DNA from: an uncultured Lachnospiraceae bacterium
GTDB taxonomy: Bacteria; Bacillota; Clostridia; Lachnospirales; Lachnospiraceae
DNA length: 41,508 bases
NCBI GenBank assembly: GCA_947168905.1
Contig: CAMVNR010000011.1
Span: forward strand, 1 to 41,508
Reading direction: 5' to 3'
Numbering within the stretch: the first letter of the stretch is position 1; each line of letters begins with the position of its first letter. The notes beneath the pieces are model-generated. The model was not told the origin of the DNA. It was given only the letters and a program-made list of their open reading frames with translations, and ran no database searches. This document shows positions 25,527-32,231 of the stretch, one piece after another. The position numbers were made by a program, and so were the translations under genes.

Positions 25527-25790
25527 TTATGCCATAGCATTTACTGCTTTAGCCAGACGTCCAATCTTCCTGCTGGAAGTATTCTTATGATAGACACCCT
25601 TCGATGCAGCTTTGGAAAGCTCTGTTTCCGCTACTCTGAAGGCTTCCTGTGCAGCCGCCTTGTCGCCGGATTCGATTGCACTGTAAACCTTCTTCACATA
25701 AGTCTTCACTCTCGACTTGATAGCCTTATTTCTCTCAGTCTTTGTCGCAGTAACGATTACACGTTTCTTAGCAGATTTAATGTTTGCCAC
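25527..25790 (-). CDS. rpsT: Ribosomal protein S20
   Basis: The 87-aa small-subunit protein starts with the family sequence (V/M)ANIKSAKKR and is rich in Lys, Arg and Ala. The start is GTG at 25790, directly after GGAGGTG at 6-nt spacing. An upstream ATG at 25853 would add 21 unrelated residues and has no site. It is transcribed alone: promoter at 25902-25929, terminator after the stop. It carries a long 5' leader of about 105 nt with a large inverted repeat. Confidence 0.97.
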   Translation of the reverse strand: MANIKSAKKRVIVTATKTERNKAIKSRVKTYVKKVYSAIESGDKAAAQEAFRVAETELSKAASKGVYHKNTSSRKIGRLAKAVNAMA

Positions 25791-25852
25791 TTTAAGCACC
25801 TCCGTATATTTTCTTTGAGCGTCACGGGGTAGAGGGTGCCCGGAACATCTCA

Positions 25853-25889
25853 TTACATTAAAACCGGAGACACGTTCGTTTTAATGTAA
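25853..25889 (-). promoter_or_regulatory. 11-bp perfect inverted repeat in the rpsT leader
   Basis: TTACATTAAAA (25853-25863) and TTTTAATGTAA (25879-25889) are exact inverted copies with a 15-nt loop. The repeat lies at the very 5' end of the predicted rpsT RNA, so a stable hairpin would form there. It could be the site of S20 feedback control or an RNA-stability element, or a DNA operator. Confidence 0.65.
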
Positions 25890-25901
25890 ACATACCCGAC
25901 T

Positions 25902-25929
25902 ATAATAACACATTTATAAGAAAAGTCAA
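25902..25929 (-). promoter_or_regulatory. rpsT promoter
   Basis: On the minus strand TTGACT (25924-25929), 16 bp and TATTAT (25902-25907). Predicted start is near 25895, six bases before the inverted repeat. Confidence 0.65.
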
Positions 25930-25946: not shown

Positions 25947-27752
25947 TTACGAGAACCAGTCTCTGGCGGATACTGCCTTTCCGTTTTTCAGATAAACCCT
26001 CGGAACACGCCTGGAGATATCGCAGGCAAGCTCATAGTTGAAGCGTCCGGAAATCTGAGCGAGCTCTTCCATCGTGATTCTTTCGTCCCCGGATCTTCCG
26101 ATCAGGGTAACCCGCGTTCCTTCCGAAGCCTCCGGAACATCCGTCACGTCGATCATCATCTGGTCCATGCAGACGCGGCCGAGAATCCGGCAGCGTACGC
26201 CGGAAACAAGCACCTCCGCGCGGTTGGACAAGGCGCGCGGATATCCGTCCGCATAGCCTACAGAGACGGTCGCGATGCGCATTTCCCGGTCTGTCACAAA
26301 GGTTCCGCCGTAGCTTACGGGCATCCCTTCCGGAAGGGTTTTCACATAGCTGATCTCGGAATACCAGGATAGCGCGGGCTGCAGCTTGGCCGCGCTGTAG
26401 TCGCATTCGTCAGACGGGTTCAGCCCGTAGAGCGCAATTCCCACTCTTAGAAGCGCCGAGTCGCTGCAGTCAAAAAGAATCGAAGCCGCACTGTTCGCAT
26501 AGTGGGAAACCGGGACTTTCACGCCGTTTTCCCTTAAGCTTTGCACAAAGGCGCGGAAGACATCTATCTGCCTTTTCGACGCTGTATTCTCCTGCATGTC
26601 GGCTGTCGCCAGATGCGTGAAGATGCCCTCGGCTTCGATGCCGGGAAGCCCGGCGGCCGAAATCGCTGTCTGAAGCCCCGATTCATCCGGCAGGAATCCG
26701 ATCCTGTGCATTCCGGTATCGACTTTCAGATGGATACAGGCCTTTTTCCCCAGTGAAAGCGCCGTATCCGAAAGGATCTCAGCGTCCTTCAGAGAATATA
26801 CGGGCAGGCGGATTTCGTTCAGAATCATCTCCGGATAGCGCTCTTTTTTTACATGTCCGAGAATGATCACCGGCTTTGTGATTCCGGCTTTTCGAAGCTC
26901 CAGCGCCTCCTCCGGCGTTGCTGCTGCAAAGCCCCAGACAAGATCCTGTATTTCTCTGGCCACCGGCACTGCCCCGTGTCCGTACCCGTCCGCCTTGACG
27001 ACAGCCGTAAAGCCATCGCTTCTTCCGGCATTTTTCATAATGGACAGGACATTATTCCTGACCGCATCCAGGTCGACAGCAGCATAGCAGCGCTCATACC
27101 CTTCTTTGAAACAGCTTTGCAGCTTTTCTTTCCTTTCGGCGGCCTGCTTGGAAAAAACGCAGCCGCAGTAATTCTGGCGGTAGAGTCCGAACTCTTTCGA
27201 CAGTTCGATGGAACGCTGGTATCCGCCCCGCTTTTTAAAATCCGACGGAAGGAAACGGACATCGAATTCCTTCGCCGCTTCTTCTCCGATTTCATTCAAA
27301 AGCGCAGCGTTCTTTAAGGGGCTGATCGTCAGCGTCGTCGTAAAGAAATCATATCCGCCTTCCTTTGCGCGCCGCGCCGTTTCATACAGCCGCAAGCGAA
27401 AGCATTTTTCACAGCGTTTTCCGCCTTCAGGAGCATCTTCAAGCCCCTTCGCAGCGCCGAAAAACGCTGAAGGCTCGTAGCTGCCTTCCATAAAGTCGAT
27501 CCGGTGTGCGGGGTTCATTTCCCGGATCAGGCGCTTTGTCTCTTCTTTTCTTAAGCGGTATTCCTCTTCTTCGGAGATATTCGGATTGTAATAGAAAACC
27601 GTGATTTCAAAAAAATCCGACAGATACTCCAGCACATAGGACGAACACGGCGCGCAGCAGGCATGCAGAAGGAGCCGCGGCACACTTCCCGTCTGCTGCA
27701 GCTCCAGAGTCATTTTATCCAGTTCTTTCTGGTAGTTTCGTTTTTGATTCAT
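25947..27752 (-). CDS. Fusion: epoxyqueuosine reductase QueH + alanine racemase
   Basis: This 601-aa frame joins two full enzymes. Residues 1-215 are QueH (DUF208), which reduces epoxyqueuosine to queuosine in tRNA; its metal-site cysteines are in HACCAPCSS (32, 33, 36), CEKC (114, 117) and YCGC (196, 198). Residues 218-601 are alanine racemase (L-Ala to D-Ala for peptidoglycan), with PLP lysine K253 in VVKADGYGHG, the catalytic-tyrosine region SVGYADGYP and RVCMDQMMID. No stop or usable ATG/GTG/TTG start lies at the junction. The ATG at 27752 has a weak site and sits two bases after the GNAT stop. The fusion is unusual; a base-calling error at the junction is the main alternative. Confidence 0.88.
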   Translation of the reverse strand: MNQKRNYQKELDKMTLELQQTGSVPRLLLHACCAPCSSYVLEYLSDFFEITVFYYNPNISEEEEYRLRKEETKRLIREMNPAHRIDFMEGSYEPSAFFGAAKGLEDAPEGGKRCEKCFRLRLYETARRAKEGGYDFFTTTLTISPLKNAALLNEIGEEAAKEFDVRFLPSDFKKRGGYQRSIELSKEFGLYRQNYCGCVFSKQAAERKEKLQSCFKEGYERCYAAVDLDAVRNNVLSIMKNAGRSDGFTAVVKADGYGHGAVPVAREIQDLVWGFAAATPEEALELRKAGITKPVIILGHVKKERYPEMILNEIRLPVYSLKDAEILSDTALSLGKKACIHLKVDTGMHRIGFLPDESGLQTAISAAGLPGIEAEGIFTHLATADMQENTASKRQIDVFRAFVQSLRENGVKVPVSHYANSAASILFDCSDSALLRVGIALYGLNPSDECDYSAAKLQPALSWYSEISYVKTLPEGMPVSYGGTFVTDREMRIATVSVGYADGYPRALSNRAEVLVSGVRCRILGRVCMDQMMIDVTDVPEASEGTRVTLIGRSGDERITMEELAQISGRFNYELACDISRRVPRVYLKNGKAVSARDWFS

Positions 27753-28270: not shown

Positions 28271-29506
28271 TTACTGCAGAAAATCGCGGATTCTTTTCGA
28301 CCGGACGGGGTTGCGGAGCTTTCTTAATGCCTTCGCCTCGATCTGGCGGATTCTCTCACGCGTCACATTGAACTCCTTGCCGACCTCCTCGAGTGTCCGC
28401 GGATGCCCGTCCAGAAGGCCGAAACGCAGGATGATTACCTGGCGTTCCCTGTCCTTCAGGTCCCCGAGAAGGGTATCAATCTCCTCCCGGAGCATGACGT
28501 TCTCCACATTCACCTCGGGCGTAACCGTATTGGTATCCGCCACAAAGTCCCCGAGGTTCGAATCGTCCTCTTCGCCGATCGGCGTTTCCAGAGACGCGGG
28601 TTCTCTCGCGATCTGCATGATCTCCATCACCTTGGATTCGGAAAGGTCCAGCGCCTTGGCAAGCTCTGTGACAGAAGGCTCGTAGCCGAGCTCCAGGGTA
28701 AGCTTTCTCTGCATTTTGGACATCTTGTTGATCGTTTCCACCATATGCACGGGCACACGGATCGTACGCGCCTGATCTGCAAGCGCACGCGTGACAGACT
28801 GCCGGATCCACCAGGTAGCATAGGTGGAGAGCTTGTAGCCCTTCGTGTAATCAAACTTCTCGACGCCCTTGATGAGTCCGAGATTTCCCTCCTGGACAAG
28901 GTCCAGGAAGCTCATTCCCCGGCCGGTATAACGTTTCGCAATGCTCACGACCAGACGAAGGTTCGCCTCGATCAGCCGCTGCTTCGCAGCTTCGTCTCCA
29001 TCGGCTTTTTTCTTGGCAAGCTCGATTTCCTCGTCCGCGGAAAGAAGCGGAACCATACCGCTTTCCTTCAGATACATGCGGACGGGATCTCCCGTGCCTA
29101 CGCCCTCCAGAAGGTCCAGATTCGTCAGGTTGATGTCCTCGGTCTCGTCCATGTCGCCGTCCGAGAAATCATCATCGAGAATATCCACATCCAGGAGCAG
29201 ATCGTCATTCATGATCCGGAGCACATCGATTTTCTTCCGCTCCAGATGAGAGATAATGCTTTCAATCTGATCCGGTGAAAGCGTAATGCCCTTGAAGAAG
29301 TTATTGATATCGTCAACTTCCAGAATGGAATTATGCTGGCGTCCGTATTCCACGAGCTTTTCAAGCATCTGCGGAGTCACCGAATTCTTGTCCTGGCCGG
29401 ACCGCAGCGCTTCTTCTTCTCTTTTCTCGTCGGCTTCATCCGTATATTCGTCTGAGATAAGTTCCTCTTCCTGCAGCTCGTTATTTTCTACGTTGTTTTT
29501 TCTCAT
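28271..29506 (-). CDS. rpoD: Primary sigma factor RpoD (sigma-A)
   Basis: The 411-aa housekeeping sigma factor has all regions: acidic 1.1 (about 45-110), 1.2 near [12 protein letters not shown], region 2 with [19 protein letters not shown] and [16 protein letters not shown] (-10 recognition), region 3, and region 4 with the helix-turn-helix [26 protein letters not shown] precedes the ATG. It follows leuS by 22 bp. In many Firmicutes rpoD follows dnaG, which is not in this window. Confidence 0.98.
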
Positions 29507-32016: not shown

Positions 32017-32227
32017 TCTGCCGCCTATGGATTTTCTGCATATAAAATCCCGGGAGTGCCGTTTCCCCGCAAGTTGACTCCCAGCATATCGCCAGGTGGG
32101 TTTCCGCATCATGACTTCTGCCTTCCACTGATAAAAGATGAGGCCTGACATCCGCCATGAGATATAGGAATCCCGTATTATGTCATGTAGGTTCAAAATA
32201 GCGGGAATATCGTACACCCCAGGACAG
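31985..32227 (-). ncRNA. Structured noncoding RNA, class uncertain (raiA-motif-like candidate)
   Basis: A promoter of TTGATA-17-TATAAT and an intrinsic terminator delimit a transcript of about 210 nt plus terminator with no coding frame. On the minus strand I can pair: a closing stem CTGTC (32223-32227) with GGCAG (32018-32022); GATAT+TCCCG with CGGGA+ATATC (32202-32211 with 32161-32175, a 5-nt bulge); TCATGGC with GTCATGA (32154-32160 with 32109-32115), enclosing GCCT/AGGC; CTGGGAGT with ACTCCCGG (32077-32084 with 32050-32057); GGATTTT with AAAATCC (32044-32050 with 32029-32035, sharing one base with the previous stem). The result is multibranched. Size, architecture and clostridial host suit the raiA motif, but I cannot confirm a family. 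No T-box core is present. Confidence 0.75.
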
Positions 32228-32231
32228 CTGT

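What the first reader, a model, noticed from the sequence alone, without database searches (positions are those of the whole stretch)
25853..25889. Perfect 11-bp inverted repeat at the 5' end of rpsT mRNA
TTACATTAAAA...TTTTAATGTAA sits immediately after the predicted transcription start and about 60 nt before the GTG start, within a 105-nt leader. This fits a ribosomal-protein autoregulatory or stability element. I know of no described S20 leader of this form in Firmicutes.
Basis: partly seen in the sequence, partly recalled or inferred. Interest (0 to 1): 0.55.

Follow-up and report, generated by a model that had tools for sequence, protein, structure and literature searches.

The report
Conserved RNA leader of rpsT
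The repeat is the stem of a conserved RNA hairpin at the start of the messenger for ribosomal protein S20 in a group of gut bacteria, probably a feedback control element, and we found no description of one for this protein.

Summary
The repeat is real (perfect 12-bp arms, 25853-25889, minus strand) and belongs to a conserved structured RNA. In the window's family, 51 of 54 rpsT leaders read contain the loop core CGUGUC, and in 48 of these 51 at least seven pairs can enclose it (58% with shuffled flanks). Stem bases covary: 119 double changes against 40 in shuffles. A covariance model built without the window finds its element; all 25 hits in 295 genomes lie just upstream of rpsT. The window's genus adds a second hairpin (P2) with invariant loop ACCCUCUAC (10 of 11 leaders) and a predicted three-way junction ending at the Shine-Dalgarno sequence. 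In one related family the hairpin takes in the Shine-Dalgarno sequence. No Rfam family matches the leader. Best explanation: an autoregulatory leader through which S20 limits its own translation; S20 binding and repression are inferred. The loops also match, antisense, one stretch of 16S rRNA, but a 23S control yields equally good single matches, so that remains a lead.

The parts
25902..25929 (-). predicted promoter of rpsT: TTGACT (25929-25924), TATTAT (25907-25902)
   Evidence: conserved spacing to the element in relatives
25889..25895 (-). P0 5' strand GUAUGUU, predicted to pair with 25804-25810
   Evidence: minimum free energy fold; same pairing in 8 of 10 genus leaders folded singly; an 8-9 bp helix is possible in 9 of 10 (7 or more pairs in 7.6% of shuffles), but the strands are nearly invariant, so no covariation support
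25853..25889 (-).
   Evidence: model R1 match 25896-25848, 27.9 bits, E 2e-4; covariation of P1 in relatives
25869..25874 (-). CGUGUC core of the P1 loop
   Evidence: CGTGTC in 102 of 110 leaders of the first two searches, 2.6 expected; 51 of 54 in the window's family
25816..25852 (-). P2 hairpin
   Evidence: fold; in the genus 88.9% of 36 pair cells paired, shuffles 59.1%, 0 of 2000 reach it
25829..25837 (-). invariant P2 loop ACCCUCUAC
   Evidence: identical in the 10 genus leaders with P2
25804..25810 (-). P0 3' strand AAUAUAC, directly before the Shine-Dalgarno sequence
25799..25803 (-). Shine-Dalgarno sequence GGAGG
   Evidence: sequence
25527..25790 (-). rpsT, ribosomal protein S20, GTG start, 87 aa
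   Evidence: Pfam PF01649, E 2.2e-29

Best explanation
The repeat is helix P1 of a cis-acting RNA leader on the rpsT mRNA. The RNA folds next to the transcription start and presents a conserved loop (CGUGUC). In this genus it also presents a second loop (ACCCUCUAC) within a three-way junction whose closing helix ends at the Shine-Dalgarno sequence. Most likely mechanism: when S20 exceeds free 16S rRNA, surplus S20 binds the leader loops, stabilises the fold and lowers translation initiation. Shown by comparison: conservation, covariation of P1 and P2, restriction to rpsT, invariant loops. Predicted by folding only: the three-way junction and Shine-Dalgarno occlusion. Inferred: S20 as ligand, repression as outcome.
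For: Conservation across the family. Hairpin round the core in 48 of 51 family leaders against 58% with shuffled flanks. P1 covariation in 86 windows not selected for pairing. P2 covariation with an invariant loop. All 25 model hits in 295 genomes sit upstream of rpsT: 23 read directly, 2 by position. In family f2 an uninterrupted helix of 8 or more pairs takes in the first two G of the Shine-Dalgarno in 19 of 21 leaders, against 9.0% with the upstream part shuffled. Weak start codons, as in E. coli rpsT: UUG 99, AUG 50, GUG 12 of 161. General knowledge: conserved structured leaders of r-protein genes are usually autogenous operators.
Against: No S20 binding data. No sequence resemblance of the conserved loops to 16S in the sense direction, so mimicry of the S20 site is not seen. 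In the family the core ends a median 46 nt before the Shine-Dalgarno, with no pairing to it that I could see outside f2 and the window's genus. Simple pairing of the Shine-Dalgarno in the best fold says nothing: 21 of 21 f2 leaders, but also 94.5% of shuffled controls. E. coli S20 showed no measurable affinity for its mRNA (review). The fold energy of the window leader is not unusual (z -1.24). P0 has no covariation and L005 forms at most 3 pairs there. The f2 and genus sequences are related, so counts are not independent events.
Confidence: 0.58

Rival explanations
1. The leader is a conserved regulatory RNA, but its ligand is another protein or a small RNA that reports growth or ribosome assembly, not S20.
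For: The loop is a short sequence-specific signal that many partners could recognise; no S20-site mimicry found in sequence.
Against: It occurs only upstream of rpsT in 25 of 25 genome hits; a general regulator would usually mark several genes.
Confidence: 0.17
2. P1 is a 5'-terminal stability hairpin that shields the mRNA from 5'-end-dependent decay, with no ligand.
For: It starts close to the predicted transcription start in the leaders where a promoter was found.
Against: A shield needs a stem, not an invariant loop; here the stem sequence varies and the loop core does not. P2 also has an invariant loop.
Confidence: 0.13
3. The loops base-pair with 16S rRNA (by recalled numbering helices 12 and 13 and the stretch near E. 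coli position 357), so the leader senses S20-free 16S rRNA.
For: CCGUGUC(UC), UUCCCCA and ACCCUCU, each enriched de novo in its clade, are antisense to positions 311-378 of a 16S of the family, in colinear order. By chance all three within 75 nt: 0.7% in random targets, 1.4% with shuffled motifs; colinear 0.1%. Local alignment puts the best site there in 3 of 10 genus leaders (0.6 expected), 23 of 131 family leaders (5.4), 12 of 29 of the order of G137 (1.1) and 7 of 73 others (3.0). Duplex prediction: 20 of 30 of the order of G137 (12 of 90 shuffles) and 10 of 21 f2 (5 of 63).
Against: Post hoc. 23S rRNA gives equally good single matches (CGTGTCTC, TTTCCCCA). Other equally enriched leader words have no 16S match. 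Of 10 motif variants, TTTCCCCAAA, AACTCTCTCA and ACACTCTCAA have their longest match elsewhere. f2 does not stand out in the alignment test (1 of 21, 1.5 expected); genus (5 of 10; shuffles 11 of 30) and family (14 of 131; shuffles 55 of 393) do not in the duplex test. GACACGG did not vary in the 16S sequences of 15 genomes, so covariation cannot be tested there; G080, whose 16S has UGGGGGAU, has no UUCCCC in its leader.
Confidence: 0.08
4. The palindrome is a DNA operator for a transcription factor overlapping the start site.
For: Perfect inverted repeat next to the promoter.
Against: Arm sequences vary with compensating changes while the non-symmetric centre is fixed.
Confidence: 0.02

Closest known systems
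Ribosomal-protein leaders (r-leaders), e.g. those of Eckert and Weinberg 2020 (PMC7247131)
   Same: Conserved, covarying structure upstream of one r-protein gene; restricted to a lineage.
   Different: None of the 20 new leaders in its Table 1 is for S20. The one row naming rpsT has ligand L20, and the passages on L20 treat it as an L20 leader, so the gene name is probably a slip for rplT. Protein binding is unknown here.
E. coli rpsT (S20) proposed autoregulation
   Same: Same gene; weak start codon (UUG in E. coli; UUG or GUG in 111 of 161 leaders here).
   Different: The review section says no conserved operator structure was found, writing mainly of E. coli and proteobacteria. The 261 bases read at E. 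coli K-12 rpsT hold neither CGTGTC nor the P2 loop.
Clostridia S4 and S10 leaders (named in PMC7247131)
   Same: r-protein leaders of the same class of bacteria.
   Different: Different genes. The leaders scanned here (window, 15 and 16 loci) match no Rfam family; I did not compare structures with these two leaders directly.

Membership tests
r-protein leader (r-leader) | consistently located upstream of an r-protein gene | tested here: met
   25 of 25 model hits in 295 genomes are upstream of rpsT
r-protein leader (r-leader) | secondary structure supported by covariation | tested here: met
   P1: 78.1% paired, shuffle mean 61.6, max 65.4; 119 double-change cells, shuffle mean 40, max 60. Further pair types not exceptional (26, shuffle mean 23.2, max 29). 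Shuffles ignore relatedness.
r-protein leader (r-leader) | binds the encoded protein | not testable with these tools
   needs a binding assay
r-protein leader (r-leader) | represses expression when the protein is in excess | not testable with these tools
   needs a reporter
r-protein leader (r-leader) | resembles the rRNA site of the protein (common, not required) | tested here: inconclusive
   the 10 loop variants have sense matches of 5-6 nt only in 16S; sense-strand scans show promoter words and short matches; structural mimicry not examined
Rfam families | score at or above the gathering cut-off | tested here: not met
   window: only 6S elsewhere; 16 loci: none; 15 loci at E up to 1: one weak match in L020, downstream of rpsT
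transcription attenuator | intrinsic terminator in the leader | tested here: not met
   no terminator-like site on the minus strand between promoter and gene in the window; relatives not scanned

The most novel reading that the evidence does not exclude
The rpsT leader is an rRNA-sensing element: its loops pair with the h12-h13-h5 part of 16S rRNA, next to where S20 binds by recall, so nascent 16S lacking S20 switches S20 synthesis on directly, without S20 as ligand.
Probability: 0.08. Interest if true: 0.92.

Novelty: new member of a known kind. Interest (0 to 1): 0.62.

Why it matters
S20 is a primary 16S-binding protein. A 2024 review says that its acting as an autogenous repressor has been neither confirmed nor refuted, citing work from 1988, and that no conserved operator structure was found. 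A compact leader with invariant loops, present in 51 of 54 leaders read in one bacterial family, many of them from gut and rumen samples (titles), gives a concrete RNA to test. The same gene appears to carry differently built leaders in related families.

Tried and rejected
DNA operator: rejected on covariation. Attenuator: no terminator in the window's leader. Small leader peptide: considered by eye only and dropped, as indels between relatives break the frame. Pairing of the P1 loop with the rpsT coding region: GACACG in 0 of 110 coding regions, 1.8 expected. Sense-strand mimicry of 16S: not seen. Free duplex prediction leader-16S: mixed and noisy. Pairing of CCCC or CCUCU loops with the Shine-Dalgarno: possible (22 of 29 leaders of the order of G137 have a GGGGG Shine-Dalgarno) but not shown. 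Bare pairing of the Shine-Dalgarno in f2 folds: dropped as evidence after the shuffle control (94.5%) and replaced by the helix test; odds left as they were. 16S of the own genome: no match in the assembly. The order-wide model search used strict filters and missed the window's own element, so 25 of 295 is a lower bound. I cannot say that rpsT is alone in its mRNA: no terminator was found after it by the scan.

Full report
Observation. A promoter-like pair lies just upstream and rpsT (S20, GTG start at 25790) begins 62 nt downstream. Perfect 11-bp arms with a 3-20 nt spacer give 7 overlapping hits at 3 places in the window; random windows give 0.17 on average, at most 3 in 60.

Conservation. 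Among the first 110 leaders, 102 contain CGTGTC; shuffles predict 2.6. The eight without are L027, L029, L044, L065, L078, L098, L102 (contig end) and L110. By kinship, leaders with the core are: window's genus 11 of 11 (of 15 genomes; three had no S20 match and one only a fragment); other genera of the family 40 of 43 (of 45 genomes); other families of the order 9 of 34 (of 36 with S20; L207 could not be parsed, and G073, left out there, lacks the core too); other orders of the class 0 of 44 leaders read, which are part of the 140 class genomes with S20, 3 of the 44 having TTCCCC. Titles of the named contigs are mostly Lachnospiraceae.

Structure. In 48 of the 51 family leaders with the core, at least 7 pairs enclose it when it is held unpaired (median 15); with flanks shuffled the fraction is 58% (median 9); L023, L172 and L194 fall short. 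In 86 ungapped windows chosen only by the loop and its closing bases, the seven middle pairs of P1 are paired in 78.1% of cells (shuffle mean 61.6, maximum 65.4 of 500) with 119 double changes (mean 40, maximum 60); sliding the partner by 1-3 bases gives at most 48% and 65. The count of further pair types is not exceptional (26, shuffle mean 23.2, maximum 29). A set of 24, taken from 38 preselected for pairing and so biased, shows the same more strongly. Shuffles ignore relatedness. The loop core stays while the stem changes, which speaks for RNA rather than DNA.

Specificity. A covariance model of those 24 sequences, which do not include the window, finds the window element as the only convincing match (27.9 bits, E 2e-4; next 12.8 bits, E 0.92). 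In 295 genomes of the order it gives one hit in each of 25 genomes at E up to 0.01 (strict filters, a lower bound). All 25 lie upstream of rpsT: 23 read directly, G233 and G062 by position.

Anatomy in the window's genus. Ten of 11 leaders have a second hairpin, P2, with the invariant loop ACCCUCUAC; in 9 distinct sequences 88.9% of cells are paired against 59.1% in shuffles, with 9 double changes against 2.4, neither reached in 2000 shuffles (the register was set by eye). In 8 of 10 full-leader folds the first bases GUAUGUU pair with AAUAUAC right before GGAGG, closing a three-way junction (in L007 the P1 part of that fold differs; the window fold is). Nine of 10 can form 8-9 pairs there, L005 only 3; shuffles reach 7 in 7.6%. 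This helix is nearly invariant, so it has no covariation support. The fold energy of the window leader is not unusual (z -1.24).

Other families. In family f2 (22 S20 loci; 21 leaders read) 21 of 21 have CGTGTC and 20 of 21 TTCCCC. An uninterrupted helix of 8 or more pairs takes in the first two G of the Shine-Dalgarno in 19 of 21, against 9.0% with the upstream part shuffled; 9 or more in 16 of 21, against 3.0%. That two or more bases around the Shine-Dalgarno are paired in the best fold (21 of 21) is not evidence, since 94.5% of shuffled controls do the same. In the order of G137, 30 of 56 S20 loci were fetched and 29 read: 27 have TCCCC and 22 a GGGGG Shine-Dalgarno; in about 5 of the 12 folded the C-run sits in a small hairpin (read by eye). 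These may be further versions of the same control.

What it does. The common thread is a loop-presenting hairpin on the rpsT mRNA, tied to the ribosome-binding site in f2 and, by prediction, in the window's genus, with weak start codons (UUG 99, AUG 50, GUG 12 of 161). In the rest of the family the link to the ribosome-binding site is not visible: the core ends a median 46 nt before it. The simplest explanation is autogenous control by S20 at translation. S20 binding and repression are not shown. Stability alone does not explain invariant loops. A different ligand is possible.

The rRNA lead. A count of leader words antisense to 16S rRNA finds, after the Shine-Dalgarno, GACACGG as the top site. 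The three clade motifs fall within 16S 311-378 in colinear order; chance for three within 75 nt is 0.7-1.4%, colinear about 0.1%. Against it: the test was devised after seeing the motifs; other enriched leader words have no 16S match; three of ten motif variants match best elsewhere; 23S rRNA gives equally good single matches; and the duplex and alignment tests disagree between clades. In 15 genomes with a readable 16S the GACACGG site did not vary, so covariation cannot decide. I keep it as the novel reading at 8%.

Known or not. Rfam 15 has no match to the leaders scanned (window, 15 and 16 loci). Literature searches (listings seen) showed no S20 or rpsT leader of this kind. PMC10931766: section 2.9 read and passages. 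PMC7247131: section 5 read and passages. PMC8040213: passages. PMC5591316: passages. Supplements, subscription papers and preprints were not searchable here.

Noticed in passing
window 25947-27752 (-): One 601-aa frame joins QueH (epoxyqueuosine reductase, residues 27-203) to alanine racemase (226-587), directly upstream of rpsT.
   Followed up: partly
window 32043-32228 (-): 6S RNA, Rfam RF00013, 69.3 bits; a 411-aa frame at 28271-29506 (-) reads like the main sigma factor, by eye.
   Followed up: no
window 15845 and 27928: Two other perfect inverted repeats with 11-bp arms: a terminator-like stem-loop (by eye) and a palindrome inside a 156-aa frame.
   Followed up: partly
L044 and L027 leaders: These two leaders lack CGTGTC but seem to carry a second hairpin with a CUCUCUCA loop; L048 and L057 have both P1 and a CACUCUCAA loop (by eye).
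   Followed up: partly
L266-L295 upstream of rpsT: In the order of G137, 27 of 29 leaders read have TCCCC before rpsT, often with a GGGGG Shine-Dalgarno (22 of 29); a possible separate S20 leader.
   Followed up: partly
L316 (E. coli K-12 rpsT): The E. coli rpsT leader holds ATATTCCTC, one base off the 16S antisense word ATATTCCCC; probably chance.
   Followed up: no
161 rpsT leaders of the window's family and relatives: The start codon is UUG in 99, AUG in 50 and GUG in 12, although the review calls UUG typical only of some gammaproteobacteria.
   Followed up: partly
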